DNA of 64,000 bases. It comes from Tubiluchus corallicola (lineage: Eukaryota > Priapulida > Priapulimorpha > Priapulimorphida > Tubiluchidae). The notes under the pieces were generated by a model, which was not told where the DNA came from, did not search any database, and saw only the letters and a program-made list of their open reading frames with translations. The number at the start of each line of letters is the position of its first letter. The stretch's first letter is position 1. Location of the stretch: contig JAQGDQ010000665.1 in the NCBI GenBank assembly GCA_030141605.1, positions 52,260 through 116,259 of the forward strand, read 5' to 3'. Shown here one piece after another: positions 984-53,063 of this stretch. The position numbers and the translations under genes were made by a program.

Positions 984-1195
984 ACCTGCTTCGCTCCTCA
1001 GAGGTAACCCTCTACTCTGCTTGTAGTTGTCGATTAGCGTCACAACTTTGTAACAATAACTTATGTCACGATGACATAGCAATAAGTTAAGTCACGACAA
1101 CGTAGCAATACCTAACGTCACAACAACATACCTGCTTCGCTCCTCAGAGGTAACCCTCTACTCTGCTCGTAGTTGTCGATTAGTGTCACAACTTT
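984..1195. repeat. Two copies of a ~60-bp module inside the degraded array
   Basis: A module starting ACCTGCTTCGCTCCTCAGAG and ending near GTTGTCGATTAG occurs at about 984-1043 and again at about 1131-1188. The copies are separated by more degraded 26-bp units, so this is a higher-order duplication. No coding potential is seen. Confidence 0.8.
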
Positions 1196-35100: not shown

Positions 35101-38100
35101 TTTGACGAGCCTTGCTAACTTTGTTGACAAAATGCACACCACCACCACTCGGTTGTGTTATTTCGAAATGAATTACCGTAAAATTTTATATCACACAAAA
35201 ACGAAGTGCGATACATTTGAAGTGACACAGTTCTTCTTAAGTGGCAATGACGATGCCACACAATACGAGAAATGAGGATTGTGGCATTACCGGCACCTGT
35301 GATTCGATGTCATTTAGTGAAATAAAAAACACTTTCGCCAGTTTACGTGAACTTTTTTATTTCGCTTTCAGAAAATTCTGCGGCATAAAGTCTATAGCAT
35401 TGAGAGGAAAGGGAAACTCGTCGTGAGGACGAAGGAGACCATTATGACCACAGTAATAACTCTCATCCGCCGCCATCGGCAGAAATTCTTCGAGGTTAAC
35501 GGCAACGTTGTTGAGGAGTTTATCACACTGGTACGGGAAAAAGTTGAAAAGCTTCAACAGTTTCTGTTCACATAGAAATCTCTTTTCTGTTCACGTTTTT
35601 TTTCTCTTTTTGACAAGTTCTGGCATGAATCAAAAGCTGTCTTGGCGAATTCTTATGTATTTAAGATTTAATTTAGGGTAAATACATAATGAGTGTTTTC
35701 TCCGTGTTTACAGGTTGAACAAATCAAGGCCCTATCAGCATTTAAAACAAAATTAAAATCACTAATATTAACCAGATATGAAATACCATCACACCAGTAC
35801 GACAACATACACACTAATTCAGAATTTATATATATACACGGCCATATTAATTAAATCATAATTTTTTCATTTTTTGTGCATAGTTGTAAATATGTTTGAT
35901 TTTATTCGTCGTTACATTCCATCACTGCACAGTAGTTTAGATTGCACTGACGCATTTGCCTTTAGCAGTGTAAGTTTTTATTAACTAACACTGATTGATC
36001 ATCTCTGTAAAGTTTTTATTCAGTGATTATTAATGTATTTTAATCGCAAATAAACATTATTATATATATATATATATATAAGATTGCCCTGTCTTGTCGA
36101 TTGGTCACGAAGGCTACATAGAGTTTTAACGGTACAATTTTACAAATTGATAATTTTTTGTGAAGCAGCGTCAAGAAAAATTAGTCTTTGCACGGGTGGC
36201 AAAAATCAGATTCTGGTACCGTTTTCCTTGAATCCGTCAGATTGTTAAGATTCAGCTACAGTGCAGAAACTGTAATGATTTATGTTCACAAATATAAACA
36301 GCCATTGGTATATTTTAACTAACTGCACTGTTATGTTAACAACAAACATTCATTTATTACACCCTGAAAGCTTGAACACACGAGCAGTGAGTCATAAAAG
36401 TTACTGTTTTCCCACATGAGGCATTTGAGTGAGTTTTTATCTGCCAGACTTCTTAATTACTTTAATTGCATGCTTCATCAATGAGTCCGCTGCATCAGTA
36501 CGTCAGCTAGGTTCCGTACTAGCATAGGGAATAAAATAATCTGTATTATCATTTTAGTGTGCTGTTGAACTTAACAAGTTTATTCGTTTCTTTGTTAGTG
36601 GCCTGAAATAGCTTTTTAAAGGTTAATAAGGTTAATTTCATTTGGATAATTAAAGAAATCATAGCTTGTTTTTTATAAGTCACCCCTGCTGCAAAAATGG
36701 TTTGGTCTGCCATATCCCTATGGGCTGTCAACCTGGCACGTTGCCAAAGCAGCAGGTACTTGTCTACTAGAAGTATCTACTGTAGAACTGCAGAAGGTGA
36801 TACTTAAAATCTAAATTCTCTAACAGCGATATCATATTAAAATAATGTCCGCATTTTCATTGTCAGAACTGGGTAGAAATATTAGACTTGAATAATAAAG
36901 AACGCGGGTAATTACTCAGGGTTCCGGATACCCGATGCAAACACTAAGAAAAATGTTACGCAACTAGACTAAGACCGACCCTTATGGACACTGTGCAATT
37001 TCACTTTCTAAGTATGTGTAGTGTGCAGTAACCTTTCAGCTATTCATCTTACCGTAAATTTTTACTGGCACAAAAGTGTTCACTATCAGCCAACTTGCCG
37101 ACTTAACAGTAAAACTTTTCGTCTTATTTCCAGAAAGAAGATCCGCCAAAGTTTGAACATTTCAGCGAGGATAAAGAGAGCGTGAGCCCCTCGTCCGATC
37201 GTTCTCACACGACGCTAAGCGAAGGCGATCTCGCCGACGTCAGCTCCTTCAAATCAAGCAAATCCGATCTCAGCAAATTTGCCTCCGACGCCAGCAAGTC
37301 GTCTTGCAACGCGGAAAAGACCAGTAGCTCCGAACGCCGAATGAGTTACGACAGGAACGTGTCTGTCAGCGAAACTCCCGTCCAGCGCGTAATGCGGCAA
37401 AGTATCGGCAGCGACGTCGGACCCGTTTTAGCCGGCGCGACTCCCGAGTTTAAAAAACCTCACCGGTTGAGTACGCGGCAGTCTTTATCGTATTTTCTAC
37501 CTCAGCAAACCAGTACGCAGGATGTGGATGATGCTCCGTACGAGAGCATCGCACAGAAATCCGCTCAGTTGTCGTCTAAACTGACACAAATCGTCACTCC
37601 GACGTCCGTCTCGAGAGTGAGCGCCGGCGGAGACGCAAAATCATCGTCCAGCGAAAGACGTAGTTCGAGCAGTCTGCCGGCATCCGTGTCCCTGTTCACT
37701 AGTCCAGAAATTTCCAAGTCTAAGAAGAAAAGTGACTTCGCCAGTGCAAGCGCGGATGAGTACGATACGCCGCTGAAGGAAGGCATTCAAACTGTACTGA
37801 AAGCGAAGCCAAGTACTTATCCGACTGAAGCCAGTCGTCGCGGAGAGGATGACAGTAACGACGCAGACAAAAGTACTTCTGCGGCAAAAGGGACTAAGAA
37901 AAGAGGAAAACCCCGGAAGAAACTGGACATCAGTGAACAGTTCACGTCGGCGGCAACGGGTACGGAAGACAAGTCTGTTTCGGGGAAGTGTTCCGACGTA
38001 CAACCCGGTGTTGCTGGCACGAGCACTGAGCAAAGATTAAGCATCGACGCACCTGACTTAAAGAACAAAGTTCTGGCAAAGTGGCGAGACAAACATTTTT

Positions 38101-41100
38101 ATCCCGGCGAAATAATCGACTACAATATAAACAAGATGGTAATCCTTTACGACGACGGCTCCATTCGCGAGCAAAAACAGTCGGAGGTGATATCGTGTGA
38201 ATCTCTAGAGAAGGGACAGCATATTATGGCACAGTTGACCGCCGATGATGATTACGAATTGGCCGTGATCGTAGCGCCGTATCAGACAGAAACGGCATGC
38301 GGTTACGTAGTGGAGGACGTGCAAACTAAAAGAAAATATTCCTGCCCAATTTCACAGACTTGTTTGAAGGTCGACCAAGCGCAACCGCTCTTGTCTACAG
38401 GATCCGCTGCTAGTACATCTAAGATTGCTCTCGAAAACATCGTAATGGGCAAACGACACGGTCGTCATCTGGACGTGTCCAGTAATCTCGACTCGTCCAC
38501 TAGCGGGCCGAACAGTGCCAAAACTACTCCGGCGAAAAAGAGGAAGAGAAAGGCGGATGCGGCCGACGTTGCGACAAGCAGCGACAGTGCTCCACCGTTG
38601 CCAAAACAGATTGCAATGATTCAAGATGAGACGCTTACCCCGAAGCATTCTAGCACGCCAACAGCCGGTAGGTTAGTTTGATTACCTAAATCCGTTCCGC
38701 ATTGTTTGTTATAAAACGTTCTGCTTTGTGTATTCAGGTGTGGTTTTACAGCCGCGGAATAGTAGCAGAATAATTTACACAAATGCTGTTATCAAACATG
38801 GGGATAACAACTGTGCATAACGGTCATCGCGCGAGTGTAAATTTACACATTTTGTACAGCGTTACTGCCGACGCAAGCCCTGCATGCAAAAAGGCAGTAT
38901 GTAAGTGGTATAAAATTTCAAGACGAATTTTTTAAGCTTGATGTAAGTGGAGGGTTTTCTTGTGCTTTAAAGACAAATATCAGTTTATGCAATTGTTTTT
39001 AACAATCGTTCATCAGATCTGCATTACTGCATATTGGATCACGCAGATGTGGAAAAACAGTTTTGATAACCGCAGCAATTTTATCGCAAGGGCTCGTGCA
39101 AAGCAGAACGCAAGACGTTGTGTTGCATGGCAAAAGAATGTTACAATACAGACAAATGTCGTGAAACAGTCATGCTCAAATTTCAAACTCGAATTTCAAA
39201 TTTTAAAGCGATTTTTTTTCGAAACCTACTTCAGGTACCCCTTTTCTTGTCCTTCAACGTAAATCATGTACGCAAAGACGCTTGTACATTTGTGGACGCC
39301 CAGCAAATGCAGACTTCACCTGTTGTTGCTTTGTGTGTATATAGATTTGGTCACATCGTAAACTAACAGAAATGCCTTTAAAACTGCAGTCTTGAGAAAG
39401 AAAGGTTTTCGTTTATTTTGCCAAACATCTACAGTTCTTTAGTTATTTTTTTGAATCACAGTAAACAATAATAACTTGTTTACTAGTCCAAAACTAAGTT
39501 ACGGTAACAGCCGTGTCATAATTCACTTTATACCAAATTTTAGAGGCAGCACAACTTGCCTTGTACTCTTTCCTCTCTGTTCTTTCTACCTCCCCCTCTT
39601 TCTCAAATACCCGAACTGTTATACCAGCCACTACGTATCGTTAGGCTTAGGAAGGAACATCGAAAAAACTCATATCTCGGTTTGCCGGAGAAAAGTGGGG
39701 AGAATTTTCTGTGCTGTTCTTTTATCTTTTAAATATCTGTGTTTTGATAAAAGTAAGTAAGTAAGTTTATTAGTTCATCACCATTTTTAAAATAGCAAAA
39801 TACATAACTAACAGATTTATAAATCTATACAACATACAATAATATTATAAAGTACAAAAGTAATTATTGATTAGTGGTGAAAGGGTGGCGAAAGAACTAT
39901 AAGTTATCGAGGTCAGCCACCCTCTCAGAATTGTTACTAATATAATTAATTAGTTAATGCGCATGTATCAGGTAATTAAAAATGATCAGATTTTCCATTT
40001 AAGACGAATGAAAAATTGAATTATTATATGAATGTGTTAGTTTATAATAAAATAATGTTCAATAATGGGAAAGAAGAGACACACGTGACCATCTTTAAAT
40101 AATAATTTAACCTTTACGTAATTAAAATTAATGTTATGGGGACCTAGAGCCAAAGGAAGAAAAAAAATTAATTTTCCGCTTGTAGCTAGCAAAAGTGGAT
40201 AAACATGTATGTTTAGTTATGAAAAAAAAGAGTTGAAAGAAAAGTATCTTAAAATTCTTTAGCATTAGCATAATATTAAAGTCTAAAGATATACAAAAGG
40301 CGTACCTTCCCTCCATAACATACATTTAAGCTGCAATGCTTACTGAAGAATTTGTACAGCAAATTCACTGTAAAAACACTATATTGATGCTGATTTCTTG
40401 TTTTCCTTAAGGAAAGTCCAAACCAGCGGGCAAAAGTGATCAAAAAGGTGCTCCTAGTCCGGTGCCTCTCTCCTCCGGCAGCCTGCGTCCTCCGGTCGCT
40501 CGGAGCCTATTCGATGATAACATTGGTCCCGTTCCTCCCATGGGAAGTACATTGTTTAAAGATATGAGGTTTGTGTTGACAAAAGCGGAGACAACGGGTG
40601 ATACAACTAGAGAAGTGCTGAACAGTTCTGAGGCATCGTCTACTGTGTCAACTGATGGTATGATCTCTGATCATTTACTATTACAAGTATTACTTGTAGC
40701 GTTGAGGTCGCTACCTTTGCAAAGTAATCTGTCATGATTGCTAAGTATTTCAGAAAAATTGTAATCGTATTACTGAAATTGATTTATTCTATATAATTAG
40801 AGAAGGTTTCACTTTTTAAACGTCTTTTGAAGTTATATGTGCGCTTGCAAACCATAAATCGTCCATAAGTCCCATAGTTAGAACTACATTATGATGCTTC
40901 AAAGTAGAATGCACCAAACATTTGGTAAGATGTCAATTTTTTATTATTTATGAAAACAAATACTAAATATATTGGACTTTTATATTCTAGCATCAAATTA
41001 TCAGGAAAATGTCCAAAAAATACTAAAAATCTAATTTTATAACTCCTTGCCCATTTTTCTGTCTACCAACTATTACTGCAGATGTAAAAAAAACTTTATT

Positions 41101-44100
41101 TTCAAACTCCAATTGTAGCTCGTTGAAGCAGCCATTTTGCTTCAGGTTTTTTCTGTTGACAAGACCAGAGCCATCTACTGGATTTAAACATAACCTCAGT
41201 TTGCTCTTGTAAAATCCATAGCAACCACACTTTCGTACAGTTAGTAAGTGTTTTGTAGAAACGTGACAAAAAACAATGGCTAACTTTAACGCTAACTTTT
41301 TCTTAAGATTATGTTTTTCAGTGTGTAGCCTGCACCTCAACTTCAACGTGGATGTAGCTTAGAAATAACATAGAGTGATGAACTTGGTATCAAAATGATC
41401 CTCATGAAATGTAGATTCAGGATATGTGAATAACTAGAAAAGATTAATTGCCGACATATGGACGATTTTGCTACGCAAGCACATTTTTATAGATAAAGAC
41501 TTTTTTATGCGCTCATTGATGTTAAACCAAAGTCTAGTGCCAGTGTTAGTGATGAATCTTGCCACATCAATCCTGCAATACTTAATAAGAAATTCATTAG
41601 GTCTTGTTGAGTAACGTCTTACGTTAATAGATAATGTGTTTAAAAAGAAAGCGGGAAGAAGTTTATGTTTGGTTTTGTGCATGTGAATAGCGGAATTAAA
41701 ATTTATGGGTTTAGATGATTTGGCGCTAGGATAGAATCAGAACTGTATTGTCACTAGAATATTCAACATAAGAAATTTTTGCATACCTTGTATGGACACA
41801 ACAATTTAACTGCTGCTAATTTTTTGGTATTTCTGGAAATCTTTGGTGTTTACGTTGACAACACGCAGTTTCGTGTCGACTAGCTTACATCATAAGATTC
41901 TTTTGTCGACAAACAGACGCTGACGTAGTTTTTGTGTATTTTTACGTGCAAAGTCTTTAGTGCAATAATTGCACTATTTTTGCATGTTGTATAGAGTAAA
42001 CTCCGCGTATCTCAAAATTGCATAACTCAAAGAATTTTAACTGAACTGATGAAATCCTTCATTTTCCCACAAAAACATCGCTTAACTCAAAATGTATAAC
42101 TCCAAATTTCACCTAACTCAAATAAACAACTATGGTCCATTTAATCAAAATACATGTAATTTACTTCGCCTAACTCAAAAATGCAATTTATACTCTAGAA
42201 AAGTTTACTACAACTCAAAAACAGTATCGTCTTCCGGCTGACGGAATAATTGAACAACAGACAAACTGAGCTGCAGTACGTAAGGCATTGGTAGCCCTAC
42301 TGTCATATTGTTTAACAGTGTTGTGTACGTGTCCTTTTGTAACATAAAAAATTGTGTTTCACTACATAATTTGTTATTATTTATGTAATTGTCATGAAAT
42401 CGCGTCGTTTATGTATAGAAGGTGTTCGGAAGATTTCTCTCTGCTTGCTCTTTAATCTAAAGTTATATTTGTGTAGAAATGCCTGTAAAACTTGGCTTCG
42501 TTATGTGCATTTAGTAAGTCAGCCAATCAGAATTGAGCACGTTTGTTTAGTCTACTAATTGGAAGCGAAGAAATCGCCATGTCTTTTACTTTTTCTGTAA
42601 TACTGAATTTAAAATAAAAGTTCTTGTGATTACTTCAAGACAAAAGGGTTGACTTTCTGCCTTCTATTTAGCTCGCCATCTGGCGGTGGGGTTTAGAGTT
42701 TCTCTGCTGGAAAATGGTCAACATCGCCTAACTCAAAGTTTTTTCTGTCCAGTTGGATTTGAGTTATGCAGAGCTTACTGTATTTACAAGAAAGTTCTTC
42801 GATTCTTGTGTTTTACTTGAAAGCAAGTCTCTGTTGAAGTATCACATTGTAGCGATTTGACGTTGACGACAACGTTGACAGTGATGTTGATGATTTTTAC
42901 AGGTGAATCAAAGGAACAGGTGCCTTTTCATAAAGAACACGTGATTAATCAGATTAAGGCCGGCGGAGGAAATGTGATAAGCAGGATTACAACATTTGAG
43001 GTAAAAACTTTTCACTTTGCACTTAGTTTCGTTTAAAGGAAAAGGCAACTCTTTCGGGAAGTTGAGCTTAGTTTAATATCTCAGAAAAATGTTAGAAAGT
43101 TTTGGCAATAAAATTGTGATAATCCCTCGTGTAATTGGTTAAAATTAATTTAAATTCGCGATCACTTCATGCTTGGGTGCATTCACTTTGAACGAAACAT
43201 CCGTCAATATAAACGCCTGCCAGTGTTTCAGCCATCTTTTTTCAGACATAGAGCAATCTCTATAAACTAATTAACTCGTCCGGCACCTACAATATGCTCC
43301 CAAGTTTGCATGCGTATCCGAAACTCAACAAAAATCTGTTAATTAACTATTTACACAATTAATGTTAATTGCTTACACATTTTAAGGTGTAGTCCTGTAG
43401 ATTAAAGCAACGTAGCCACTTTAAATGTGATCATAGTTGGTCAAATCACTGATTTCTACACAAACACACTTAAACACAAAGTTAGGCTAACGGAACTTTA
43501 AGCAAACTGCAGAAATTTCTCAATGCGTACCTTCATCACAGCTTGTCTTCACAGCATTCACGTCGCCCAGCAGGCTCAAGTTTACGTCATTTTTTCAAAT
43601 GTGCCAGCAGCAATGTTCATTTAGCGAAGTATAAAATATATTGAAATTTGTTTTGCATTTTCGCAGGAGAAATTTTTACAAAGGTTTTACTAGTCCTGCG
43701 TATCAGTGTGATATACTAACAGTTGACATTTTTACTCATTTAGATTCCCGGGGACGACTTGTTTCTCGTCTCGGATAATTACTGCCGGACGGAGAAGTAC
43801 CTACAGGCTCTTGCTCTGGGAATCCCGTGCGTTTCAAACATCTGGATTCGTGACTGCTGCAAATTTGTAAGTGCTTAAAAGGGGAGAGGGAGGGAATTTC
43901 AATGTATGTCTCAAAAAACCTTCCATGCAAAATGATATTACTTAGCATTATGCTTAGCTGCTTGAAAGACTTACATAATTGGAAAAGAAAATTCTTAATA
44001 ATTTAAAATGTTTCTGTCAACTGGTAAAATATCACTCACCTTCCCAGTGTGCACCGTTGACTCACCTTCCCAGTGTGCACCACTGACTCACCTTCCCAGT

Positions 44101-47100
44101 GTTCACCGTTGACTCACCTTCCCAGTGTGCACCACTGACTCACCGTTCCAGTGTACACCGCTGCCTCATCTTCCCAGTGTACACCTCTGACTTATCGTCC
44201 CAATGTGCACCACTGACTCACCTTCCCAGTGTGCACCACTGACTCACCGTTCCAGTGTACACCGGTGTACACCGCTGCCTCATCTTCCCAGTGTACACCG
44301 CTGACTTATCGTCCCAATGTGCACCACTGACTCACCTTCCCAGTGCGCACCACTGACTCGCCTTGCCAGTGTGCACCGCTGACTCACCTTCCCAGTGTGC
44401 ACTGCTGACTCACCTTCCCAGTGTGCACCGTTGACTCACCGTCCCAATGTGCACCGCTGACTCACCTTCCCAGTGTGCACCATCCCAATGTGCACCTCTG
44501 ACTCACCTTCCCAATGTGCACTGCTGACTCACCTTCCCAGTGTGCACTGCTGACTCACCTTCTCAGTGTGCACCGTTGACTCACCTTCCCAGTGTGCACC
44601 ACTGACTCACCTTCCCAGTGTGCACCGCTGACTCACCTAAAAGGCGCTGTTAATCTTATTGACCATAGAAAGTAATTTATACCTTTGCTTAGTTAGCCCT
44701 TAGTGCGCTACAAATGTATATAGATATAGATATATATCTGTCATGCAAAAAATTAAAAAAACATGACACATGCTCGATTTTAGTCTTACGTAGTTGAACT
44801 TTGAGATTTTTTTCGTATTTCTAGAACGTTCTACATTCATTCCAAGCTTATCTGTTGCCGGCGGGACGTAATATTGAAACTGGAGAACTCATAGATCAGC
44901 GATTGTAAGTGCAATTAGTGGTTGTCTTGTGTAATTCTGAAGGAGCGATTGTAAGTGCAATTAGTGTTTGTCTTGTGTAATTCTGGAGGAGCGATTGTAA
45001 GTGCAATTAGTGTTTGTCTTGTGTAATTCTGAAGGAGCGATTGTAAGTGCAATTAGTGTTTGTCTTGTGTAATTCTGGAGGAGCTATTGTAAGTGCAATT
45101 AGTGTTTGTCTTGTGTAATCCTGGAGGAGCGATTGTAAGTGCAATTAGTGTTTGTCTTGTGTAATTCTGAAGGAGCGATTGTAAGTGCAATTAGTGTTTG
45201 TCTTGTGTAATTCTGAAGGAGCGATTGTAAGTGCAATTAGTGTTTGTCTTGTGTAATCCTGAAGGAGCGATTGTAAGTGCAATTAGTGTTTGTCTTGTGT
45301 AATTCTGAAGGAGCGATTGTAAGTGCAATTAGTGTTTGTCTTGTGTAATCCTGAAGGAGCGATTGTAAGTGCAATTAGTGTTTGTCTTGTGTAATTCTGA
45401 AGGAGCGATTGTAAGTGCAATTAGTGTTTGTCTTGTGTAATCCTCAAGGAGCGATTGTAAGTGCAATTAGTGTTTGTTTTGTGTAATTCTGAAGGAGCGA
45501 TTGTAAGTGCAATTAGTGTTTGTCTTGTGTAATCCTGAAGGAGCGATTGTAAGTGCAATTAGTGTTTGTCTTTGTTTGGGGGGTTGTGTGTTGGTTGTTG
45601 TTTTGGGGGTTGTGTGTTGTGTTTGTTTGTGTTTGGGGGTTGTGTGTTGTGTTTGTTTGTGTTTGGGGTTGTGTGTTGGTTTGTTTTTTTGAGGAGCATT
45701 GTAAGTGCAATTAGTGTTTGTCTGTAATCTGAGGAGCGATTGTAAGTGCAATTAGTGTTTGTCTTGTGTAATCTGAAGGAGCGATTGTAAGTGCAATTAG
45801 TGTTTGTCTTGTGTAATTGGTTGTGTGTTGTGTTGTTTTGTTTGGGGGTTTGTGTTGTGTTTGTTTGTTTTGAAGGAGCGATTGTAAGTGCAATTAGTGT
45901 TTGTCTTGTGTAATCCTGGGGGTTGTGTGTTGTGTTTTTTGTGTTGGGTTGTGTGTTGGTTTGTTGTTTCTGAGGAGCGATTGTAAGTGCAATTAGTGTT
46001 TGTCTTGTGTAATCTAAGGAGCGATTGTAAGTGCAATTAGTGTTTGTCTTGTGTAATTCTGAGGAGCGATTGTAAGTGCAATTAGTGTTTGTCTTGTGTA
46101 ATCTGAAGGAGCGATTGTAAGTGCAATTAGTGTTTGTCTTGTGTAATCTGAAGGAGCGATTGTAAGTGCAATTAGTGTTTGTCTTGTGTAATCTGAGGAG
46201 CGATTGTAAGTGCAATTAGTGTTTGTCTTGTTAATTAGGAGCGATTGTAAGTGCAATTAGTGTTTGTCTTGTGTAATCTGAGGAGCGATTGTAAGTGCAA
46301 TTAGTGTTTGTCTTGTGTAATTTGAAGGGGTTTGTGTTGTGTTTGTCTTGTGTAATCTGAGGAGCGATTGTAAGTGCAATTAGTGTTTTTGTTAATTCTG
46401 AGGAGCGATTGTAAGTGCAATTAGTGTTTGTCTTGTGTAATCTGAGGAGCGATTGTAAGTGCAATTAGTGTTTGTCTTGTGTTTGGGGGTTGTGTGTTGT
46501 GTTTTTTGTGTAATTCTGAGGAGCGATTGTAAGTGCAATTAGTGTTTGTCTTGTGTAATCTGAAGGAGCGATTGTAAGTGCAATTAGTGTTTGTCTTGTG
46601 TAATCTGAGGAGCGATTGTAAGTGCAATTAGTGTTTGTCTTGTGTAATTCTGAAGGAGCGATTGTAAGTGCAATTAGTGTTTGTCTTGTGTAATCCTGAA
46701 GGAGCGATTGTAAGTGCAATTAGTGTTTGTCTTGTGTAATTCTGAAGGAGCGATTGTAAGTGCAATTAGTGTTTGTCTTGTGTAATCTGGCTGAGGAGCG
46801 ATTGTAAGTGCAATTAGTGTTTGTCTTGTGTAATCCTGAAGGAGCGATTGTAAGTGCAATTAGTGTTTGTCTTGTGTAATTCTGAAGGAGCGATTGTAAG
46901 TGCAATTAGTGTTTGTCTTGTGTAATCCTGAAGGAGCGATTGTAAGTGCAATTAGTGTTTGTCTTATGTAATCCTGGAGGAGGCATGTTAATGATAACAA
47001 TGCAATGCAAATTGCACTTCAGTGAACAGATTAAACTCGGGGATGTTTGCCAATGATTTCACTTTGGCTTGAGTTTCGTTTTCGTCGAAAATCGTTAAGT

Positions 47101-50100
47101 TTCGTAGCTGGAACTTTCCGTAATTTTCAGTAGTATTTCCGAGGTTTTAGAAGTATTTATCCAGCTTTCGTTTTTTCTCATAGATGTAAAAAATGCTGAA
47201 AAATTTTATGTTAAAATATTTCGAATAAACTGTAAATATCGTTTGTTTAACTTTTTGCACCGTTTGTAGCATGCTTTTTACGGCAATGCGGCATATCTTT
47301 AGTGCTGACTACGAAGATTTAAGCTCTCCAGACACAATCAATCGAAATATCAAAGCGCAGGTTGAATAAAACCAAGTTTAAGTTGATAATTTGTGAAATA
47401 TAGGTATCATAATATTTACAAAATAAAATTATTTAATTTTCTTCAAGCAACATGATCTTTAATAATAAACATTGTTCTACTTTTTTGGTTAGGATTTTTT
47501 GTCCAGCTACTTCATCAAGATGAATTATTATTTCGATTTGATTTCTTTTCGGTATCGGTTTCCAATGTTTTGTAAACTTCGGTTTGTAATTTCAGTTTCA
47601 GTAACACCCCCGGTTAAACCTGAAATATATTGTGCTCTATAAAGTTTCAGTTTTTACACAGAAATGGAAAGAAAATTCTCTAACTAAAATTTTCTGATGT
47701 ATTTAACTTTTTCTTCCTGGTTTAAATTAGGTTTTATTTCCAAAGAATCTTTTGCACGTTTTACTCGTGAGATGACATCAGCAAAATTCAGTCCTTAGTT
47801 ATGGCAGCATTTGCATTTGATTTGATTCACTTCTTCTTTATTTCAAACTTTCGTTCATGTCATATTAGTACAAGATTAAAAATATATACAACGAAAATAC
47901 AAGTAAATAAACAAAACAACATTACAAAAAAATAAAAATAACATTTCGCATTGCCTTCAATCATTGTATCAATGAATATCAACAATGTAAAAATTAAACA
48001 TACAATATCCGTCTCCAAATCTTTCTTTCACTGGAAGTAAATAAAGTATCACTACCGAATATCGTTCTACACAACAAGTTTTCACTGTTTGAAATTTTAG
48101 TATCCAGACTGTAAATGCTTTGTCCTGTAAATAACATCAAAGTACACTAATTTATGAGTCACAGAAATGTCCCTGGCACTGTGATCGAACTCATAATTAA
48201 AAAATTTGATTAAAGAAAACTTGTTTTTACGATAAATTTGACCTTTAAATTTTCACGTATTAGCAGCCTGTTTTGTCCTCGACGGAAGGTGACATCAGCA
48301 ATAGGTCGATGGGACAGTCGCGGTCCGTTTAATGGAAGTTATTCACGTTTAACCAATACTAAATTAATCGTTAATCAATCCAAAATCTGTTTGCTGTTGT
48401 TTTTATACAGTTGTGAGATTATCTGTTGTTTTTCTCTATTACACAAAAAATTAATTTACATAATAGCTCTTGTTAAATAGGTGTCATTTGAAAGGAAAGT
48501 CTGGAAGTTCATTTTGTGCATTTTACTTGTTAAATGAACTCCTTAGTCCTTAGTTTCAGCAGTGTTTGCATTTGGTTATCACATGACACATTTCATTGTG
48601 TAACATTGTTTACAAATTCAGCATCACAAAATCCAACGAAGCCATTGCTAGCACGTTTAAGTTTCTCGAGAAGTTTTTCTCTTTTTGTCACGGAGATTGT
48701 TTTACATTCGTGCTGCCTTGATTATTTCAGACGACATTTCCATAAGAAGTGCCTGCTGGAGAAGCGGATGCTCGTGCTCGACGAGAAACTGACGAAAACG
48801 TGGATGAAGGTGCTGCTCTCTGCTGGCTGCGGTGTGATTTCCGATTCCAAAGCACTCGAATCAGGTTTGTAACGTGTCTCTGACTTCAGGCTGTTGCAGC
48901 AATAATTACGTTTTTAATTTATAATATGCGTGCATTATTACTTGACCATCGCATCGTGAATTTGATATAACCAGTTGTGGAATTGAACCCACAACCTTCA
49001 GCATGGAAAACACGGAAATCTATAAATATTTTGTTCATCTCAGCAAGTGATTGCAAAAAAGTCCAAGGGTAAATCTTCAATCTGTAAGCTAAGTGTATTT
49101 GGTTAGCCGAACAGCCAAACACCACGGCCAGTTCAGTGGCTTATCTGAGAGGATTGTAATTGATAATAAACAAGATTGAAATTGAACAATTGAAAATTCC
49201 TGTTTAGCCACACTTGCCCGCGTGGGATATGCTCCTGCATATCATTTTAATAAATTAGCATATTATTACATTGAAAAAAAAGGCGGTAACTCGTTCAGGA
49301 CCAAAACTCGTTAATGCATTTTACGTGGGTTCATGAAAAACTGCTCTCACTAAGCAGCGATTACGTCACATTGCATAATTTTTGTAGGTTTTGAAAAAAT
49401 TGAAAAAGCTTTTCAGTAACTGCAGTGTTTGCACTGTAACAATGTACAGCATCAGCATCACTTGTGTGAAATTGGCTAATGTAGAAAATTTCAACTATCC
49501 AGACACAACACTCTGACACACTTTAGCATCAAGTCTACTCTATTTTTAAGAAGAAATTCCTGTTAAAAGAGGAAATGACCTTAATTTCTCCTTGGTTGAT
49601 CGGTTGGTTTTTCCTGGAATAGCAGCAGAACACTGCACAGCTTGAGCAGCAGGAAGCAGGCAATCAATAAAATAGCATGTACGATCACGCAAGTGTACAC
49701 CAGACTAAGCTACTCAATAGACTAAGTTGGGGTGCCTGAAAAGGGCGTGTTTTTCTTAATTTTATCCAATTAAATCACTTATAAATGTTTAAACAAATAG
49801 CATGATTGGGGCACCGAGATCTTCCTAAATAGAACAGTGCCTAATTTGTAATCATTTAGTTAGGTCTCTGCTCATACAGTAGTCTTATAAGATCTGTTCT
49901 GAATGGTGCGGTCCTGAAGGAGTTGAAAGCATAAACTCAAAATTGTCAGGAATATGATAAAACAGCATTCACCTATCCCTCACCTTTCCAGCAGACTCAG
50001 TATTACTTAACTTCTGTTGCCCAGCGCATATCGTGACTACTCAGCTGTTCTTTACCCCAAGTGACTCTTTAGTCTCTGTAGTTCCTCTACGAACTTTAGA

Positions 50101-50357
50101 TGTCATTATGACCTTTATTTTGAGTTTGGCACTGGAGTAAATAGAGATCTTTAATCAGTGAATTTTTCTCTTTATCAGACGAAGCAAACGTGGATGTCAT
50201 TTTACAAGAAGGCGGATGCAGCGAGGCCGTCGCGAACAAAGCTGAGGAGTCGGGTGTACCAATGGTCTCCACGGAGTGGCTTATACAGTGCCTTATAAAT
50301 GGGAAAGAAATGGATTTGGACGGACACGAGAAATATTCGTACAAGTTCCGTTGCTAG
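13996..50357 (+). CDS. TP53BP1: TP53BP1 (53BP1) orthologue, 19 exons, 5' end uncertain
   Basis: Chromatin reader that marks DNA double-strand breaks and steers repair to end joining. Exons at 13996-14127, 15597-15720, 18019-18135, 18322-18430, 19993-20148, 21491-21574, 24953-25076, 26268-27043, 29063-29187, 31622-31829, 34047-34195, 35372-35530, 37134-38667, 40412-40657, 42903-43000, 43744-43866, 44825-44904, 48731-48864 and 50179-50357 join with consistent phases into about 1,555 codons (human about 1,970). Order of domains: N-terminal acidic VLVEDTDS, low-complexity Ser/Thr/Pro region, oligomerisation domain (about residues 706-770), tandem Tudor (about 1070-1172), UDR motif (about 1185-1206), KKRKRK nuclear signal, two BRCT domains to the C-terminus. 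Domain order and many local motifs match human 53BP1. The long N-terminus looks poorer in SQ/TQ sites than in vertebrates. The start codon is unresolved. Confidence 0.93.
14185..14841. mobile_element. TIR element, family H, copy 1
   Basis: Ends begin GGCTGGCCACGAGAACATTG on the left and, inverted, GGCCAACAATAAAAATACTT on the right; both continue into TTTCTGTC. An inverted copy with about 70-80% apparent similarity lies at 21693-22308. No target duplication was recognised and no transposase is seen. The 84-residue open frame inside it is accidental. Confidence 0.75.
14842..15596. other. Rest of TP53BP1 first mapped intron
   Basis: AT-rich intron sequence without a recognised element or exon. 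The polypyrimidine tract before 15597 is short (CTCATTTTACAG). Confidence 0.6.
15597..15720 (+). CDS. TP53BP1: TP53BP1 exon (FVPPSPGAF motif)
   Basis: Acceptor TTTTACAG, donor TTTTCAG|GTAGAT, phase 2 to 0. It encodes FVPPSPGAFEGHSTKETGSE and more, similar in spacing to the human LVAPSPDAFRSTP segment. The motif supports colinearity of the N-terminal half. Confidence 0.85.
15721..16040. other. Intron sequence before the SINE
   Basis: Start of the 2.3-kb intron; AT-rich, nothing recognised before the SINE at 16041. Confidence 0.6.
16041..16280 (-). mobile_element. tRNA-derived SINE, well preserved
   Basis: Read on the minus strand it opens GGCAGACGGTTTAGTCTAGTGG, with an A-box-like TAGTCTAGTGGTAATGC and a B-box-like GAGTTCGAACC, then GGTCATACCACAGACTTTAA, TGCCCTGCCTGACG and GGTAAAAGTGGGGTAATAAC. 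This is a pol III promoter head joined to an unrelated body, i.e. a SINE. The central segment resembles the MetaSINE-type conserved domain as I remember it. Copies at 7340-7510 and 59528-59715 share it. Confidence 0.85.
16875..17646 (-). mobile_element. Internally deleted hAT transposon with transposase C-terminus
   Basis: TIRs CAGTGGTTTCCAAACTTTC and, inverted, CAGTGATTCCCAAAGTAGG, flanked by ATCTAAAA and ATCTAAAC (7 of 8). On the minus strand, 17179-17520 encodes the dimerisation end of a hAT transposase of the ZBED/SCAND3 type: NLEEFWIGEM, ALNILTCFSTTYLCEQGFS, KTKKRNRLDVE and PRIEKLASEKQAHPSH. The catalytic region is missing, so the copy is non-autonomous. It sits antisense in a TP53BP1 intron. 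Confidence 0.9.
17179..17520 (-). pseudogene. hAT transposase C-terminal fragment
   Basis: A frame of about 110 codons, open without stops, covering only the end of a hAT transposase. The W.....S..P.L...A...L..F.TTYLCE.GFS pattern and the terminal QAHPSH are typical of ZBED-like hAT proteins. The conserved open frame implies a fairly young insertion. There is no start region or DDE core. Confidence 0.88.
18019..18135 (+). CDS. TP53BP1: TP53BP1 exon, Ser-rich
   Basis: Acceptor CTTCTTTTACAG, donor ACACAG|GTACAG, phase 0 to 0, 39 codons. It encodes EWQPSPIASSSSGDAAKAKT and a second serine run. No domain is recognised; it is placed by phase and position. Confidence 0.78.
18322..18430 (+). CDS. 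TP53BP1: TP53BP1 exon, basic
   Basis: Acceptor TTTGTTTCTAG, donor CCGAGAA|GTTAGT, phase 0 to 1. It encodes VRLRSGDKKKTPADFTRIGE and on to KPDTAKPR. No recognised domain. Confidence 0.75.
18939..19466. mobile_element. Tigger/pogo-like MITE, family E, copy 1
   Basis: CAGTGTTCCCTCAGTTATCG at the left and GAGAGGAAACACTG at the right, flanked by TA on both sides. The subterminal ATTCCAGGCCCACCCACG and repeated CGCGGGTTTT/GTGAAGCAGCGAGTCC words are of the Tigger style. No open transposase. Other copies: 25568-26163 and 62553-63028. Confidence 0.85.
19560..19775 (+). mobile_element. hAT-like family B, 5'-truncated fragment
   Basis: Matches the right half of the element at 4822-5556 from GCCACTCCGTCAAACTTGAG to the TTTCGGTATCAT end; left half absent. 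Confidence 0.7.
19993..20148 (+). CDS. TP53BP1: TP53BP1 exon (FSLHLSLTPEEN motif)
   Basis: Acceptor GTTTTTTCTAG, donor CGTACAG|GTAATA, phase 1 to 1, 52 codons. It encodes QEDSFSLHLSLTPEENI and LPCLVGMFKPTDSK, parallel to the human PFHFTLPKEGDIIPP ... PPLIGHLKLEPK segment, a small conserved island in the long N-terminal half. Confidence 0.85.
20166..20502. repeat. (TG)n-rich microsatellite just inside a TP53BP1 intron
   Basis: About 340 bp of TG runs with GTGTGAATGAGGGAGTGTG interruptions, starting some 17 bases after the 5' splice site at 20149. On the sense strand the pre-mRNA carries long UG runs. The His/Thr-rich antisense frames are artefacts. Confidence 0.95.
20750..20928. repeat. 40-bp tandem repeat, ~4.5 copies
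   Basis: Unit ACTATTACATTTAATTAGCG plus AGAGTCTTAAAGCCTATTTT, almost identical between copies. Intronic. Confidence 0.92.
20929..21490. other. TP53BP1 intron remainder
   Basis: AT-rich intron with no recognised element. A plus-strand open frame at 21176-21490 shows no family resemblance. Confidence 0.5.
21491..21574 (+). CDS. TP53BP1: TP53BP1 exon, small
   Basis: Acceptor GTGTTTTTTTAG, donor TTGACCA|GTAAGT, phase 1 to 1, 28 codons. It encodes KDRTGSNNGHSSGSND and QQEPLFKLT. Placed by strong splice sites and phase; no domain. Confidence 0.7.
21693..22308. mobile_element. TIR element, family H, copy 2 (inverted relative to copy 1)
   Basis: Ends GGCCGACTGTAAAAATACTT and, inverted, CGGCCACAAAAAAAATTTGT. 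The interior matches 14185-14841 in reverse complement, including ATTTTAAATATTCCACGATTCAG. Two inverted copies 7 kb apart flank four TP53BP1 exons. Confidence 0.75.
22591..22966 (+). repeat. Interspersed repeat family X, copy 1
   Basis: From AATAATTACCTCAGATACTC to AACAATTGCTAACTTTT; matches 58559-58895 in the same orientation over most of its length, including CTACTAAGATTGGCAA and TTGACGCGCAAGGGAAGACG. Class unknown. Confidence 0.8.
22967..23716. other. Intronic, unassigned
   Basis: No supported exon or known repeat. A loosely repeated CTG/TGC-word segment at about 23460-23630 (CTGCATATCTGGTTGC, CTGCATGTGTAACTGA, CTGCATAGCTGATTG) may be a decayed minisatellite. Confidence 0.5.
23717..24384. 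mobile_element. Possible Tigger-like element
   Basis: The right end, read inverted, is CAGTACGTCCTCGCTTAACA with TA outside, and the left end carries TTTTCGCTTAACGAATCCCT and TTTAGCGACATTTC. This has the look of a pogo/Tigger MITE with diverged ends. Boundaries are approximate. Confidence 0.45.
24385..24952. other. TP53BP1 intron, 3' part
   Basis: AT-rich; a short repeat of TAATAAATGTAATATTG words at about 24860-24910. No exon recognised. Confidence 0.5.
24953..25076 (+). CDS. TP53BP1: TP53BP1 exon with basic cluster
   Basis: Acceptor GTGTTCATTTTAG, donor CTCAG|GTGCGT, phase 1 to 2. It encodes PTSVEKIIKDAKESPPKKRK and then ERRYEWKVPARREEL. PPKKRK is a plausible nuclear localisation signal. 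Confidence 0.8.
25262..25460 (-). mobile_element. hAT-like family B, truncated inverted fragment
   Basis: On the minus strand it starts CAGGGATCTTAGCGAAATG and follows the left half of the element at 4822, including GATAATTGCACTTTCGGTT. The right half is absent. Confidence 0.7.
25568..26163. mobile_element. Tigger/pogo-like MITE, family E, copy 2
   Basis: CAGTGTTCACTCGCTGCTTC on the left, TGAGGGAACACT on the right; contains TCGCGGGTTTTCAAAAATAT. The orientation is inverted with respect to copy 1. Flanking TA is not intact on the left. Its right end stops about 105 bp before the next exon. Confidence 0.8.
26268..27043 (+). CDS. TP53BP1: TP53BP1 large exon with two coding minisatellites and an AT-hook-like motif
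   Basis: Acceptor CCTTTTTAACAG|TGAAGA, donor CAAACTG|GTTAGT, phase 2 to 1, 258 full codons with no stop. Order: EDAFALACQEFPRFPSS, six 7-residue repeats of the TARQGGE type (26329-26454), PRRRGRPPKSKDKR (AT-hook-like, with the RGRP core), a Ser/Pro/Thr segment, then six 7-residue repeats of the EQVDHTG type (26845-26970). A different frame over the first repeat is also open, but only this one connects in phase to both neighbours. Confidence 0.82.
26329..26454 (+). repeat. 21-bp coding minisatellite I (6 units)
   Basis: Six exact-length units of GCAAGGCAAGGAGGGGAGAC plus G, differing by point changes. 21 bp keeps the frame, giving TARQGGE-type heptads. Purine-rich on the coding strand. Confidence 0.95.
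26845..26970 (+). repeat. 21-bp coding minisatellite II (6 units)
   Basis: Six units of GAGCAGGTGGATCAAACTGG plus T, giving EQVDQTG-type heptads; the outer units are more diverged. Unrelated in sequence to minisatellite I but of identical period. Confidence 0.95.
27128..27905. mobile_element. MITE family J, copy 2, with internal ~122-bp tandem expansion
   Basis: Ends carry TTCAGACTAGCGAGTTTTCA and its inverse form. Inside, a unit of about 122 bp (AGTTACTGTCGACACTTCCT ... TAACTTACAGCAAGTTTTGC) is repeated about five times with few changes. It looks like a foldback MITE whose interior has been amplified in place. Confidence 0.8.
27961..28030. repeat. CACATGTG-rich imperfect palindrome
   Basis: TCACATGTGAGACATGTGAGACATGTGACAAGTGTCACATGTGTGACATG-type sequence: repeated GACATGTG words that are also self-complementary. 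Short and intronic. Confidence 0.75.
28385..29025 (+). repeat. Interspersed repeat family Z, copy 1
   Basis: Matches 61845-62475 in reverse complement over about 630 bp: AAAGCAAAACCGGATCC, ATGACTTACGTGAAAG, the TGTACCTCTCAGTTCAGA segment shared with 3151-3385, and TGTCTTCCTGCAC at the far end. It ends about 35 bp before the next TP53BP1 exon. Class unknown; the open frames inside are not conserved. Confidence 0.8.
29063..29187 (+). CDS. TP53BP1: TP53BP1 exon, Lys/Arg/Ser-rich
   Basis: Acceptor CTTATTTCTATAG, donor AAATCTAAA|GTAAGT, phase 1 to 0. It encodes DIADQSMPSKPTGDEAGPVR and TRSSKKPISLKERRKSK. Confidence 0.8.
29188..30140. other. TP53BP1 intron, 5' part
   Basis: Holds a fragment of the family-K element near 29218-29310 (TTTTCCGCTGGTGCGCGGAA, TTTTTGGAAGACCAGTAG, shared with 50568-51090) and a short family-Z-like piece near 29715-29780. 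Otherwise unassigned. Confidence 0.6.
30141..30320 (-). mobile_element. LINE reverse-transcriptase C-terminal relic
   Basis: The minus strand reads IQKLRWLGHLLSLPNEAPV and then RITLKEALKPCKNHLA without a stop, matching the LRWLGHVLRMP-type end of LINE polymerases. Flanks are decayed. The clade cannot be fixed from so little. Confidence 0.7.
30321..31621. other. TP53BP1 intron, 3' part
   Basis: AT-rich. A ~45-bp word (GAAACCTACTTCGGGTACCC ...) at about 31088-31130 recurs at 39219-39260, so an unclassified repeat is present. No exon seen. Confidence 0.5.
31622..31829 (+). CDS. TP53BP1: TP53BP1 exon, Ser/Thr/Lys-rich
   Basis: Acceptor GGTGCAG|GTGAAA, donor AATCTAG|GTTAGT, phase 0 to 1. It encodes VKTQKLAKRAKRKSTAVIST, two STDS boxes and PPKSPAKSRTLRKGN. 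The acceptor lacks a good pyrimidine tract; the alternative CAAAG six bases upstream keeps the same frame. Confidence 0.78.
32040..32145 (-). mobile_element. LINE 3'-end fragment
   Basis: Carries CTTCTTCTTCTTCCCAGC and CTATTCGGGGTCGCCGTTGT, the same 3' terminus as the larger LINE piece at 33350-33830, in the same (minus) orientation. 5'-truncated almost entirely. Confidence 0.8.
32296..32451. repeat. 78-bp tandem duplication
   Basis: Two copies of a 78-bp unit beginning GTGACCGTAACAATGCCAAC, nearly identical. Intronic. Confidence 0.9.
32817..33218. mobile_element. Tigger/pogo-like MITE, family G, copy 1
   Basis: Ends CGCTCAGTTTGCCAGACAAA and, inverted, CACGCATACCTCGGTTTGCC, with TA on both flanks. 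Internal GTCCGAATTTGCCGATTGTC and AACAAAGTGATG words are shared with 51378-51884. Confidence 0.8.
33350..33830 (-). mobile_element. RTE-like LINE 3' part with reverse-transcriptase tail
   Basis: On the minus strand a frame encodes KGKVHKEVVRPALIYGLQAA, EMRMLRWMVGITRRDKIRN and IRGTVKVVEASQ, the widespread C-terminal signature of RTE-type LINE polymerases. Upstream on the same strand is the GGTCCCAAGCCCGGATAAAT segment typical of such elements, and the element ends in a GAA-rich tail. It is 5'-truncated and internally shortened, hence inactive. Confidence 0.88.
33831..34046. other. Intron end before TP53BP1 exon at 34047
   Basis: AT-rich with no recognised element. Confidence 0.5.
34047..34195 (+). 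CDS. TP53BP1: TP53BP1 exon preceding the oligomerisation domain
   Basis: Acceptor TTTGTTGTGTAG, donor AGTGAG|GTACAG, phase 1 to 0. It encodes VEPAAIATTSTQVLGDPHEF and ends with FSRVDSSDMSDSE, an acidic lead-in like the one before the human oligomerisation domain. Confidence 0.85.
34378..34896. repeat. 29-bp minisatellite with internal hairpin
   Basis: About 18 copies of GACATCATGTTTGATGACTT plus CATAAGAAT, with variants (TAACAGT, CACATGG). CATCA-TGTT-TGATG within each unit is a small inverted repeat, so the array could form a row of hairpins. Intronic. Confidence 0.93.
35372..35530 (+). CDS. TP53BP1: TP53BP1 oligomerisation-domain exon
   Basis: Acceptor TTTATTTCGCTTTCAG|AAAATT, donor ACACTG|GTACGG, phase 0 to 0, 53 codons and no internal ATG that would make it obvious. 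It encodes KILRHKVYSIERKGKLVV, then KETIMTTVITLIRR, then FFEVNGNVVEEFITL. The blocks parallel human HVLHRHMRTI, RTLVTRVITDV and YYVDGTEVERKVT, the 53BP1 oligomerisation region, and the next exon continues the match. A few residues are inserted between the second and third blocks. Confidence 0.85.
35700..36080 (+). mobile_element. Possible LINE 3' end with (TA)n tail
   Basis: The plus strand reads IKALSAFKTKLKSLILTRYE before stops, like the FKSKLKTHL end of several animal LINE polymerases, followed by a T-rich region and a (TA)n run at 36057-36080. Tentative. Confidence 0.5.
36081..37133. other. TP53BP1 intron, unassigned
   Basis: About 1 kb with no recognised repeat or exon. Confidence 0.6.
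37134..38667 (+). CDS. TP53BP1: TP53BP1 main exon: tandem Tudor domain and UDR motif
   Basis: Acceptor CTTATTTCCAG, donor ACAGCCG|GTAGGT, phase 0 to 1, 511 full codons. The start (FEHFSEDKESVSPS, then GDLADVSSFKSSKSDL) continues the human TEVSPS ... GDLGDISSFSSK alignment. A Ser-rich stretch with KGTKKRGKPRKK stands where vertebrates have the Gly-Arg-rich segment. The tandem Tudor runs from about VLAKWRDKHFYPGE (38070) to KVDQ (38376). The ubiquitin-dependent recruitment motif follows (KIALENIVMGKRHGR, about 38421-38465), then KKRKRK (38535). Base composition is clearly less AT-rich than the surrounding introns. Confidence 0.95.
38668..40411. other. TP53BP1 intron between Tudor and BRCT exons
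   Basis: Contains an interspersed repeat at about 38800-38950 that recurs at 52895-53010 (CGTTACTGCCGACGCAAGCC in one copy), a ~45-bp word shared with 31088-31130, and a fragment of a family-G end near 39665-39705 (CATATCTCGGTTTGCCGGAG). The stretch 39760-40130 is AT-rich and may be a retroelement 3' end. Confidence 0.55.
40412..40657 (+). CDS. TP53BP1: TP53BP1 exon, linker and start of BRCT1
   Basis: Acceptor TTTTCCTTAAG, donor ACTGATG|GTATGA, phase 1 to 1. PPMGSTLFKDMRFVLTKAE matches the human LPLNKTLFLGYAFLLTMA, the first strand and helix of BRCT1. Before it is a Pro/Ser linker. Confidence 0.93.
40838..41485. mobile_element. TIR element, family I, copy 1
   Basis: TGTGCGCTTGCAAACCATAA with TCGTCCATAAGTC on the left and, inverted, TGTGCTTGCGTAGCAAAATCGTCCATATGTC on the right. 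About 650 bp, AT-rich, no transposase. A direct copy lies at 60056-60690. Superfamily not determined. Confidence 0.75.
41486..41993. other. TP53BP1 intron spacer
   Basis: About 500 bp between two mobile elements, with nothing recognised. Confidence 0.5.
41994..42780. mobile_element. Tigger-like element, family F
   Basis: GAGTAAACTCCGCGTATCTC at the left and, inverted, CAGTAAGCTCTGCATAACTC at the right, both flanked by TA. Subterminal CATAACTCAAA words are repeated. 787 bp, no transposase frame. Confidence 0.8.
42903..43000 (+). CDS. TP53BP1: TP53BP1 BRCT1 exon
   Basis: Acceptor TGATTTTTACAG, donor ACATTTGAG|GTAAAA, phase 1 to 0. It encodes PFHKEHVINQIKAGGGNVIS, matching human PFNKQYTESQLRAGAGYIL. 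Confidence 0.93.
43001..43743. other. TP53BP1 intron, unassigned
   Basis: 743 bp with no recognised element. Confidence 0.6.
43744..43866 (+). CDS. TP53BP1: TP53BP1 BRCT1 exon with the conserved Trp
   Basis: Acceptor TTTACTCATTTAG, donor AAATTT|GTAAGT, phase 0 to 0. It encodes FLVSDNYCRTEKYLQALA and GIPCVSNIWIRDCC, matching human LIADQHCRTRKYFLCLA and GIPCVSHVWVHDSC. The W is the BRCT hallmark tryptophan. Confidence 0.95.
44036..44638. repeat. 26-bp minisatellite in a TP53BP1 intron (~23 copies)
   Basis: Unit GACTCACCTTCCCAGTGTGC plus ACCGCT, with a few variant units (ACCGTTCCAGTGTACACC, TTATCGTCCCAATGTGC). A single displaced copy of 1.5 units is found at 52713-52753, 8 kb away. Confidence 0.95.
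44825..44904 (+). CDS. TP53BP1: TP53BP1 inter-BRCT exon; its donor seeds the 46-bp array
   Basis: Acceptor CGTATTTCTAG, donor CAGCGATT|GTAAGT, phase 0 to 2. It encodes NVLHSFQAYLLPAGRNIETG and ELIDQR, matching human QLQNYRNYLLPAGYSLEE. The last seven coding bases (AGCGATT) together with the splice site are present in nearly every unit of the downstream array. Confidence 0.94.
44898..46985 (+). repeat. 46-bp minisatellite built from a 5' splice site (~40 copies)
   Basis: Unit GCGATTGTAAGTGCAATTAG, TGTTTGTCTTGTGTAATTCT, GAAGGA. The first unit overlaps the exon end at 44904; each later unit repeats AGCGATT|GTAAGTG, so about 40 exact 5' splice-site copies follow the real one within 2.1 kb. Unit variants differ mainly by one-base losses (CTGAGGAG for CTGAAGGAG). 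Several stretches are replaced by GT/GGGGTTGTGTGTTG sequence. The His/Asn/Thr-rich antisense frames arise from the repeat. Confidence 0.96.
45573..45690. other. Degenerate G/T-only segment within the array
   Basis: GTTTGGGGGTTGTGTGTTGT-type sequence, almost devoid of A and C, replaces about two and a half units; similar shorter patches occur near 45822-45872, 45917-45970, 46322-46350 and 46480-46515. It may be real divergence, but the pattern (only G and T, homopolymer slippage, abrupt edges) suggests low-quality consensus in an unresolved array. Confidence 0.6.
47038..47612. mobile_element. hAT-like non-autonomous element, family B, copy 2
   Basis: CGGGGATGTTTGCCAATG on the left and AGTAACACCCCCG on the right, flanked by ATTAAACT and GTTAAACC (6 of 8). 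Interior matches 4822-5556, with TTCGTTTTCGTCGAAAATCG near the left end. Confidence 0.8.
47613..48730. other. TP53BP1 intron, 3' part
   Basis: AT-rich; 47820-47960 has A-rich retroelement-tail character. No exon until the acceptor at 48730. Confidence 0.5.
48731..48864 (+). CDS. TP53BP1: TP53BP1 BRCT2 exon
   Basis: Acceptor TTGATTATTTCAG, donor GAATCAG|GTTTGT, phase 2 to 1. It encodes RHFHKKCLLEKRMLVLDEKL and WMKVLLSAGCGVISDS, aligning with the human second BRCT (ENPFQNLKVLLVSD ... LMTGGAASV). Confidence 0.93.
48865..49272. other. Last TP53BP1 intron, 5' part
   Basis: About 400 bp with nothing recognised before the family-Y repeat. Confidence 0.5.
49273..49866 (+). repeat. Interspersed repeat family Y, copy 1
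   Basis: Matches 57070-57725 in the same orientation, e.g. GAAAATTTCAACTAT, GATCGGTTGGTTTTTCCTGG and AAAGGGCG...TTTTTCTTAATTTTA. About 590 bp, class unknown, no coding capacity seen. Confidence 0.8.
50179..50357 (+). CDS. TP53BP1: TP53BP1 terminal exon, end of BRCT2
   Basis: Acceptor TCTCTTTATCAG, phase 1, ending at TAG 50355-50357. It encodes VDVILQEGGCSEAVANKAEE, GVPMVSTEWLIQCLING and KYSYKFRC, matching human PVVSQEWVIQCLIVGE and KYKHDYVSH. The W of STEWLIQCL is the BRCT2 tryptophan. Confidence 0.96.
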
Positions 50358-52712: not shown

Positions 52713-52753
52713 TATCAGCGAATCACCTTCCCAGTGTGCACCACTGACTCACC
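52713..52753 (+). repeat. Orphan unit of the 26-bp intronic minisatellite
   Basis: CACCTTCCCAGTGTGCACCA and CTGACTCACC, about 1.5 units of the array at 44036-44638, alone in unrelated sequence. Confidence 0.88.
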
Positions 52754-53063
52754 AAAAACGTATTTTTGATTTTATTCACAATGGAGTAGTTAGTGAAATG
52801 TGCATTGTAAATGTTATGATCATTTTTTCAAACTTTAAGCAAATTATATCTAAACTTGTTTAAAACAACTTACTGTTAAAATGATTGCATCTAACGGTCA
52901 TCATAGGAGTTTAGATTTACAAGTTTTATAGAACGTTACTGTTAATACAAGCCCTGTATGCAATAAAACAGTACATGGGTAATGCAAAATTTTTAAATTT
53001 TGCACAATTTAAGCATTTTAGACAATCAGAACCTGTCAGTGCACATTAACTATATAAACTGCT

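What the first reader, a model, noticed from the sequence alone, without database searches (positions are those of the whole stretch)
44898..46985. A real 5' splice site has been amplified about 40 times into the downstream intron
The exon at 44825-44904 ends CAGCGATT|GTAAGTGCAATTAG. The 46-bp repeat that follows carries AGCGATT|GTAAGTGCAATTAG in almost every unit, so exon-end bases and the donor are copied together. The intron therefore opens with an array of decoy donors as good as the real one. Use of any of them would add multiples of about 46 bases and usually shift the BRCT2 frame. The gene must tolerate this through first-donor preference, exon definition, or noisy splicing. Internal AG sites in each unit could also create micro-exons. 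I know of no described case of this exact form, though I cannot search.
Basis: partly seen in the sequence, partly recalled or inferred. Interest (0 to 1): 0.8.

Follow-up and report, generated by a model that had tools for sequence, protein, structure and literature searches.

The report
Splice donor amplified into intron minisatellite
In an animal's 53BP1 DNA-repair gene, the last seven bases of an exon and its splice donor have been copied head-to-tail about 40-48 times into the intron; this is a large example of a known kind of repeat (amphioxus 'mirages', human IFI6), it recurs at other genes of the same genome, and every extra donor would stop the protein early if it were used.

Summary
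An 80-nt exon of a TP53BP1 (53BP1) gene (44825-44904) is followed by a 46-bp array, 44898-46982. Each unit repeats 7 exon bases plus the donor, and all 40 readable donors are identical from -3 to +8. The array occurs once in the genome.

Two corrections. Decoy use does not shift the frame: any extension reads CGA TTG TAA, the same immediate stop. And the middle of the array is corrupted: its G/T-only stretches are repeat units with every A and C missing; counting G and T alone gives 48.0 units, so copy number is uncertain, at least about 48.

It is not unprecedented: amphioxus 'mirages' are tandem duplications of exon-intron boundaries that leave splicing normal (PMC3087553, PMC3902484), and human IFI6 repeats supply several donors.

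New here: the class recurs. Tandem donor words exceed reversed words 8- to 15-fold genome-wide; a 3'-splice-site word shows no excess. Of 21 donor arrays inspected, 8 start at an exon end (HSP60, Smoothened and axonemal dynein by clear homology). The window holds a second, short case. Most likely a neutral minisatellite with the first donor used; splicing was not observed.

The parts
44825..44904 (+). TP53BP1 exon (end of BRCT1 and linker), NVLHSFQAYLLPAGRNIETGELIDQRL, phase 2 at its 3' end; true donor ATT|GTAAGTGC
   Evidence: aligns to human 53BP1 NYRNYLLPAG region; acceptor TTTCTAG at 44824
44898..46982 (+). 46-bp minisatellite ('mirage'): 40 readable units, each 7 exon bases plus donor and 39 intron bases in all
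44905..48730 (+). host intron; ends TTATTTCAG
   Evidence: GTs with U1 pairing as good as the real donor: 43, of which 1 lies outside the array
45571..45691 (+). G/T-only block: about 4 repeat units with A and C missing (artefact)
   Evidence: edit distance 14 to the A/C-deleted unit; shuffles mean 30, min 27
45817..45872 (+). G/T-only block, same artefact
   Evidence: 8 vs shuffles min 10
45917..45969 (+). G/T-only block, same artefact
   Evidence: 8 vs shuffles min 9
46327..46346 (+). short G/T-only block, same artefact
   Evidence: 1 vs shuffles min 2
46477..46511 (+). G/T-only block, same artefact
   Evidence: 2 vs shuffles min 5
48731..48864 (+). next TP53BP1 exon, RHFHKKCLLEKRMLVLDEKLTKTWMKVLLSAGCGVISDSKALES (start of BRCT2)
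42903..43000 (+). upstream TP53BP1 exon (BRCT1)
43744..43866 (+). upstream TP53BP1 exon (BRCT1); its donor TTT|GTAAGTGC is single-copy
50179..50357 (+). last TP53BP1 exon (BRCT2 end, stop TAG)
37113..38667 (+). TP53BP1 exon with tandem Tudor region
   Evidence: Hsr-9 Tudor, Pfam E 8e-6, 26.1 bits against a cut-off of 27

Best explanation
The array is a 'mirage': a minisatellite that began as a tandem duplication spanning an exon-intron junction (44898-44943, the last 7 exon bases plus 39 intron bases) and then grew and homogenised by unequal exchange, slippage or gene conversion. The spliceosome most likely keeps using the first, exon-proximal donor, so the decoys are silent intron sequence. 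Any decoy use would spoil that mRNA copy: it reads ...CGA TTG TAA, ending the protein before BRCT2, with later junctions that would expose it to decay. Shown here: sequence, gene identity, junction inside the unit, identical donors, in-frame stop, uniqueness of the array, and recurrence of the same kind of array at other genes of this genome. Inferred: the order of events, use of the first donor, and lack of function.
For: The unit starts 7 bases inside a homology-supported exon. Array flanks fit one tandem duplication, with 2-bp AG microhomology between the unit start and the sequence after the array (AGGCATG). Reading through gives NVLHSFQAYLLPAGRNIETGELIDQRL*. The genome carries the same architecture at HSP60 (PDB E 3e-21), Smoothened (E 4e-25), axonemal dynein heavy chain (E 1e-10) and other exons. 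Amphioxus mirages at Adh3, globins, TnC and PGBD5 are reported not to disturb splicing (PMC3087553; PMC3902484).
Against: No RNA evidence is available here. In the human IFI6 minisatellite, downstream repeat donors are really used (PMC4526556), so silence cannot be assumed. The donor word is over-represented in arrays genome-wide, which a purely random origin of arrays would not predict.
Confidence: 0.8

Rival explanations
1. Functional or noisy multi-donor array as in IFI6: several repeat donors are used, and because every one brings the same TAA, the array lowers 53BP1 output or makes a BRCT2-less protein in proportion to its length.
For: All 40 donors are identical to the real one; IFI6 uses downstream repeat units as donors (PMC4526556); the first decoys would make exons of 126, 172, 218 nt, a normal size range (inference).
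Against: Decoys all poison the frame, unlike the 12-bp in-frame IFI6 unit (unit length from memory); amphioxus mirages reported silent (PMC3087553, PMC3902484).
Confidence: 0.12
2. The array as a whole is an assembly artefact.
For: Internal G/T-only blocks are A/C-deleted units and central units lack homopolymer bases: the consensus there is poor.
Against: 14 clean 46-bp units at the left and clean units at the right carry consistent, shared variants; nine other exon-end arrays or duplications exist in the assembly, and none of the eight outside the window contains a G/T-only or A/C-only run of 18 or more in the stretches fetched.
Confidence: 0.03
3. U1-binding array with a protective role: the 40 U1 sites suppress premature polyadenylation in the 3.8-kb intron.
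For: 12 AATAAA/ATTAAA words lie in the intron downstream of the array and none inside it.
Against: AT-rich introns contain such words by chance; no comparison or expression data.
Confidence: 0.04

Closest known systems
Amphioxus 'mirages' (Adh3; globins BflGb6, BflGb9; TnC; PGBD5), PMC3087553 and PMC3902484
   Same: Minisatellite-like tandem duplication of an exon-intron boundary, with exon bases and splice signal in the units; unit 10-72 bp in Adh3; edges less homogenised than the core; reported not to disturb splicing
   Different: Here about 40-48 units against 3-6 in BflGb6; different gene (TP53BP1); organism not identified, so same lineage not shown; splicing not tested here
Human IFI6 (6-16, G1P3) minisatellite, Turri et al. 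1995 (cited in PMC4526556 and PMC2572611)
   Same: Repeat units at an exon end each supply a splice donor
   Different: IFI6 repeats are used as alternative donors; here any decoy gives an immediate stop
Intron gain by tandem duplication of AG/GT proto-splice sites (discussed in PMC3087553)
   Same: Tandem duplication spanning a splice junction
   Different: Here the copies sit in an existing intron and no new intron position is seen

Membership tests
Mirage (tandem duplication of an exon-intron boundary) | Tandem repeat unit spans the exon-intron boundary | tested here: met
   7 exon bases plus donor in each unit
Mirage (tandem duplication of an exon-intron boundary) | Boundary belongs to a real exon | tested here: met
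   53BP1 homology across the junction
Mirage (tandem duplication of an exon-intron boundary) | Normal mRNA splicing despite the copies | not testable with these tools
   no RNA data
Mirage (tandem duplication of an exon-intron boundary) | Length variation among haplotypes or individuals | tested here: inconclusive
   only one copy of the locus in the assembly
Mirage (tandem duplication of an exon-intron boundary) | Organism is a cephalochordate (where mirages were named) | tested here: inconclusive
   GFP family, lancelet-type GFP protein and COX1 searches found nothing; an empty answer does not show absence
IFI6-type multi-donor minisatellite | Repeat donors are used in mRNA | not testable with these tools
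   no RNA data
IFI6-type multi-donor minisatellite | Extension keeps the reading frame | tested here: not met
   TTG TAA directly after the junction

The most novel reading that the evidence does not exclude
In this genome tandem duplication is aimed at 5' splice sites: minisatellites form at exon-intron junctions far more often than elsewhere (donor-word arrays 8-15 times the reversed-word control, no such excess for a 3' splice-site word), perhaps through a co-transcriptional process at U1-bound junctions, leaving possibly hundreds of genes with stacks of perfect decoy donors that the spliceosome ignores.
Probability: 0.3. Interest if true: 0.75.

Novelty: new member of a known kind. Interest (0 to 1): 0.45.

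Why it matters
It is a natural experiment on donor choice: about 40 identical 5' splice sites lie in a row, all but the first being poison. Junction counts would show directly how strictly the first donor is preferred. The recurrence in one genome (HSP60, Smoothened, dynein, TP53BP1 and others) turns an anecdote from amphioxus into something countable and raises a testable question: why arrays gather at donors and not at acceptors. The A/C-dropout blocks also warn that repeat interiors in this assembly are not reliable.

Tried and rejected
Systematic junk motif: the G/T-rich block was searched genome-wide as a recurring artefact; it occurs only in this array, which led to the A/C-deletion explanation. 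Second haplotype: none found. Organism: GFP, COX1 and mNeonGreen searches gave nothing usable; left undetermined. Plain GTAAGT triplets: swamped by (GTAA)n simple repeats, no excess (19101 vs 18521); the longer words AGGTRAGT and CAGGTRAGT were needed. 3' splice-site word TTTYCAG: no excess (1517 vs 2484). Donor arrays without a visible exon at their start (C17, C26, C29:36k, C30, C38, C48, C5:42k, C161, C236, C265, C357 twice) were rejected as mirages; C195 begins about 60 bp inside the intron and was not counted. The original papers on Adh3 (Canestro 2002) and IFI6 (Turri 1995) are not held; they are known here through citing papers. Micro-exons from internal AGs were not testable.

Full report
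Observation. The exon at 44825-44904 and the repeat that follows are as described. The 21-mer AGCGATTGTAAGTGCAATTAG is present 39 times within two mismatches, 38 of them exact; shuffled sequence gives none. Cutting the array at GTAAGTGCAATTAG gives 40 units, 44898-46982; units 1-14 are exactly 46 bp, as are most of units 33-40. All 40 donors share the 11-mer ATT|GTAAGTGC. Of 461 GTs in the intron, 43 pair with U1 at least as well as the real donor by a simple duplex energy, and only one of these lies outside the array.

The gene. Joined exons 42903-43000, 43744-43866, 44825-44904, 48731-48864 and 50179-50357 encode a BRCT pair that matches human 53BP1 over 198 residues (PDB 1gzh, E 6e-33; next family: fission yeast Rhp9/Crb2). 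An upstream exon carries a region matching the Hsr-9 Tudor model just below its cut-off. So the exon and the donor are real, and the junction lies in the linker between the two BRCT domains. The window is C921:52260-116259 of a 343.5-Mb genome.

What decoy use would do. The exon ends in phase 2: ATA GAT CAG CGA TT|G TAA. Any extension past the true donor therefore meets TAA at once, whichever decoy is used.

Quality of the array. Five stretches contain only G and T. The 46-bp unit with all A and C removed is GGTTGTGTGTTGTGTTTGTTTGTGTTTTGGG, and these stretches follow it: over 121 nt the edit distance is 14, against a mean of 30 and a minimum of 27 for dinucleotide-preserving shuffles and 24 for the reversed template. 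The shorter blocks point the same way with smaller margins. With A and C removed from the whole array its length is 1489 nt = 48.03 units, and the word TTGTGTGTTG occurs exactly 48 times. No biological process known to me deletes two letters only; loss of the A and C signals in the reads behind the consensus is the natural reading (inference; the platform is unknown). Most units between 45694 and 46610 also lack one T or A of TT/AA pairs. The array is thus real, its centre is badly determined, and at least about 48 units were read. No other such block is in the window, and the long pair-only runs in 120 kb sampled elsewhere are simple repeats.

Origin. The unit equals 44898-44943. The array is followed by AGGCATG, so a first duplication could have used a 2-bp AG microhomology (inference). 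Unit 1 and the last unit carry private differences, and the inner ones share variants (AATTC/AATCC, GAAGG/GGAGG), as expected when inner units are homogenised and edges are not; the same was described for amphioxus globin mirages (PMC3087553).

Recurrence. Three AGGTRAGT words at 20-50 bp spacing: 2014 matches genome-wide, against 252 for the reversed word and 113 and 185 for a scrambled word and its reverse. For CAGGTRAGT, 583 against 38. The single-copy frequency does not explain this: in 120 kb of sampled sequence AGGTRAGT occurs 4 times and its reverse 8 times (small numbers). Matches are not independent, since long arrays and dispersed families count many times. By distinct arrays the contrast persists: about a dozen AGGTRAGT arrays in contigs up to C48, where the scrambled word has one. 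TTTYCAG shows no excess (1517 vs 2484).

I inspected 21 of these arrays. Eight begin at an exon end, with exon bases in the unit: C29 (HSP60), C32 (Smoothened; Pfam Fz 5e-12), C173 (axonemal dynein heavy chain), and with weaker support C34 (neuron-navigator-like, Pfam 0.0025, below cut-off), C338 (maestro HEAT-like, 8e-5, below cut-off), C5, C467 and C217 (open frame with a plausible acceptor or a matching exon end; no database support). In C217 only about 4 exon bases are shared. The sample is the first part of each hit list, not a random draw. The window itself has a further, short case: on the minus strand an ankyrin exon end (1132) with its GT is copied at 986, 64 bases with two mismatches, beside a 26-bp minisatellite.

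Known counterparts. A literature search found the same thing named: amphioxus mirages, reported at Adh3, globins, TnC and PGBD5, with length and somatic instability and without disturbed splicing. Human IFI6 has a minisatellite that provides multiple splice donors, of which downstream units are used. Hence a new member of a known kind. Whether the organism is a lancelet was not determined.

Verdict. Best explanation: neutral mirage with first-donor use, 0.8. The part that deserves follow-up is the genome-wide gathering of arrays at donors and the natural experiment in donor choice.

Noticed in passing
window 986-1132, minus strand: Ankyrin-gene exon end with its GT donor duplicated (64 bases, 2 mismatches, 146 bp apart), beside 26-bp minisatellites at 257-984 and 1054-1130; the minus strand of the 257-984 array carries GTRAGT 17 times.
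   Followed up: partly
window 45571-46511: Repeat units with every A and C missing inside an assembled genome: an apparent two-letter signal dropout preserved in the consensus.
   Followed up: yes
window 44034-44638 and 52716-52755: 26-bp array (minus strand AAGGTGAGTCAGTGGTGCACACTGGG) in the intron just upstream, a dispersed minisatellite family also at C29:36.7k and C48:60.8k; carries strong donors on the antisense strand.
   Followed up: partly
window 26835-27041: Coding 21-bp repeat (QTGEQVD-like) in an upstream open frame whose units contain ACTGGTGAGC, resembling the likely exon end AAACTG|GTTAGT near 27044; possibly a coding relative of a mirage.
   Followed up: no
window 47044-47519 and 47809-48207: Two dispersed repeats (many copies, 78-93% identical) fill much of the intron 3' of the array.
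   Followed up: no
G000 C17, C26, C38 (L063, L069, L064): Dispersed 42-45-bp family AGGTAAGTCAAATGTAGACA with a perfect donor word per unit but no exon at its start; origin unknown.
   Followed up: no
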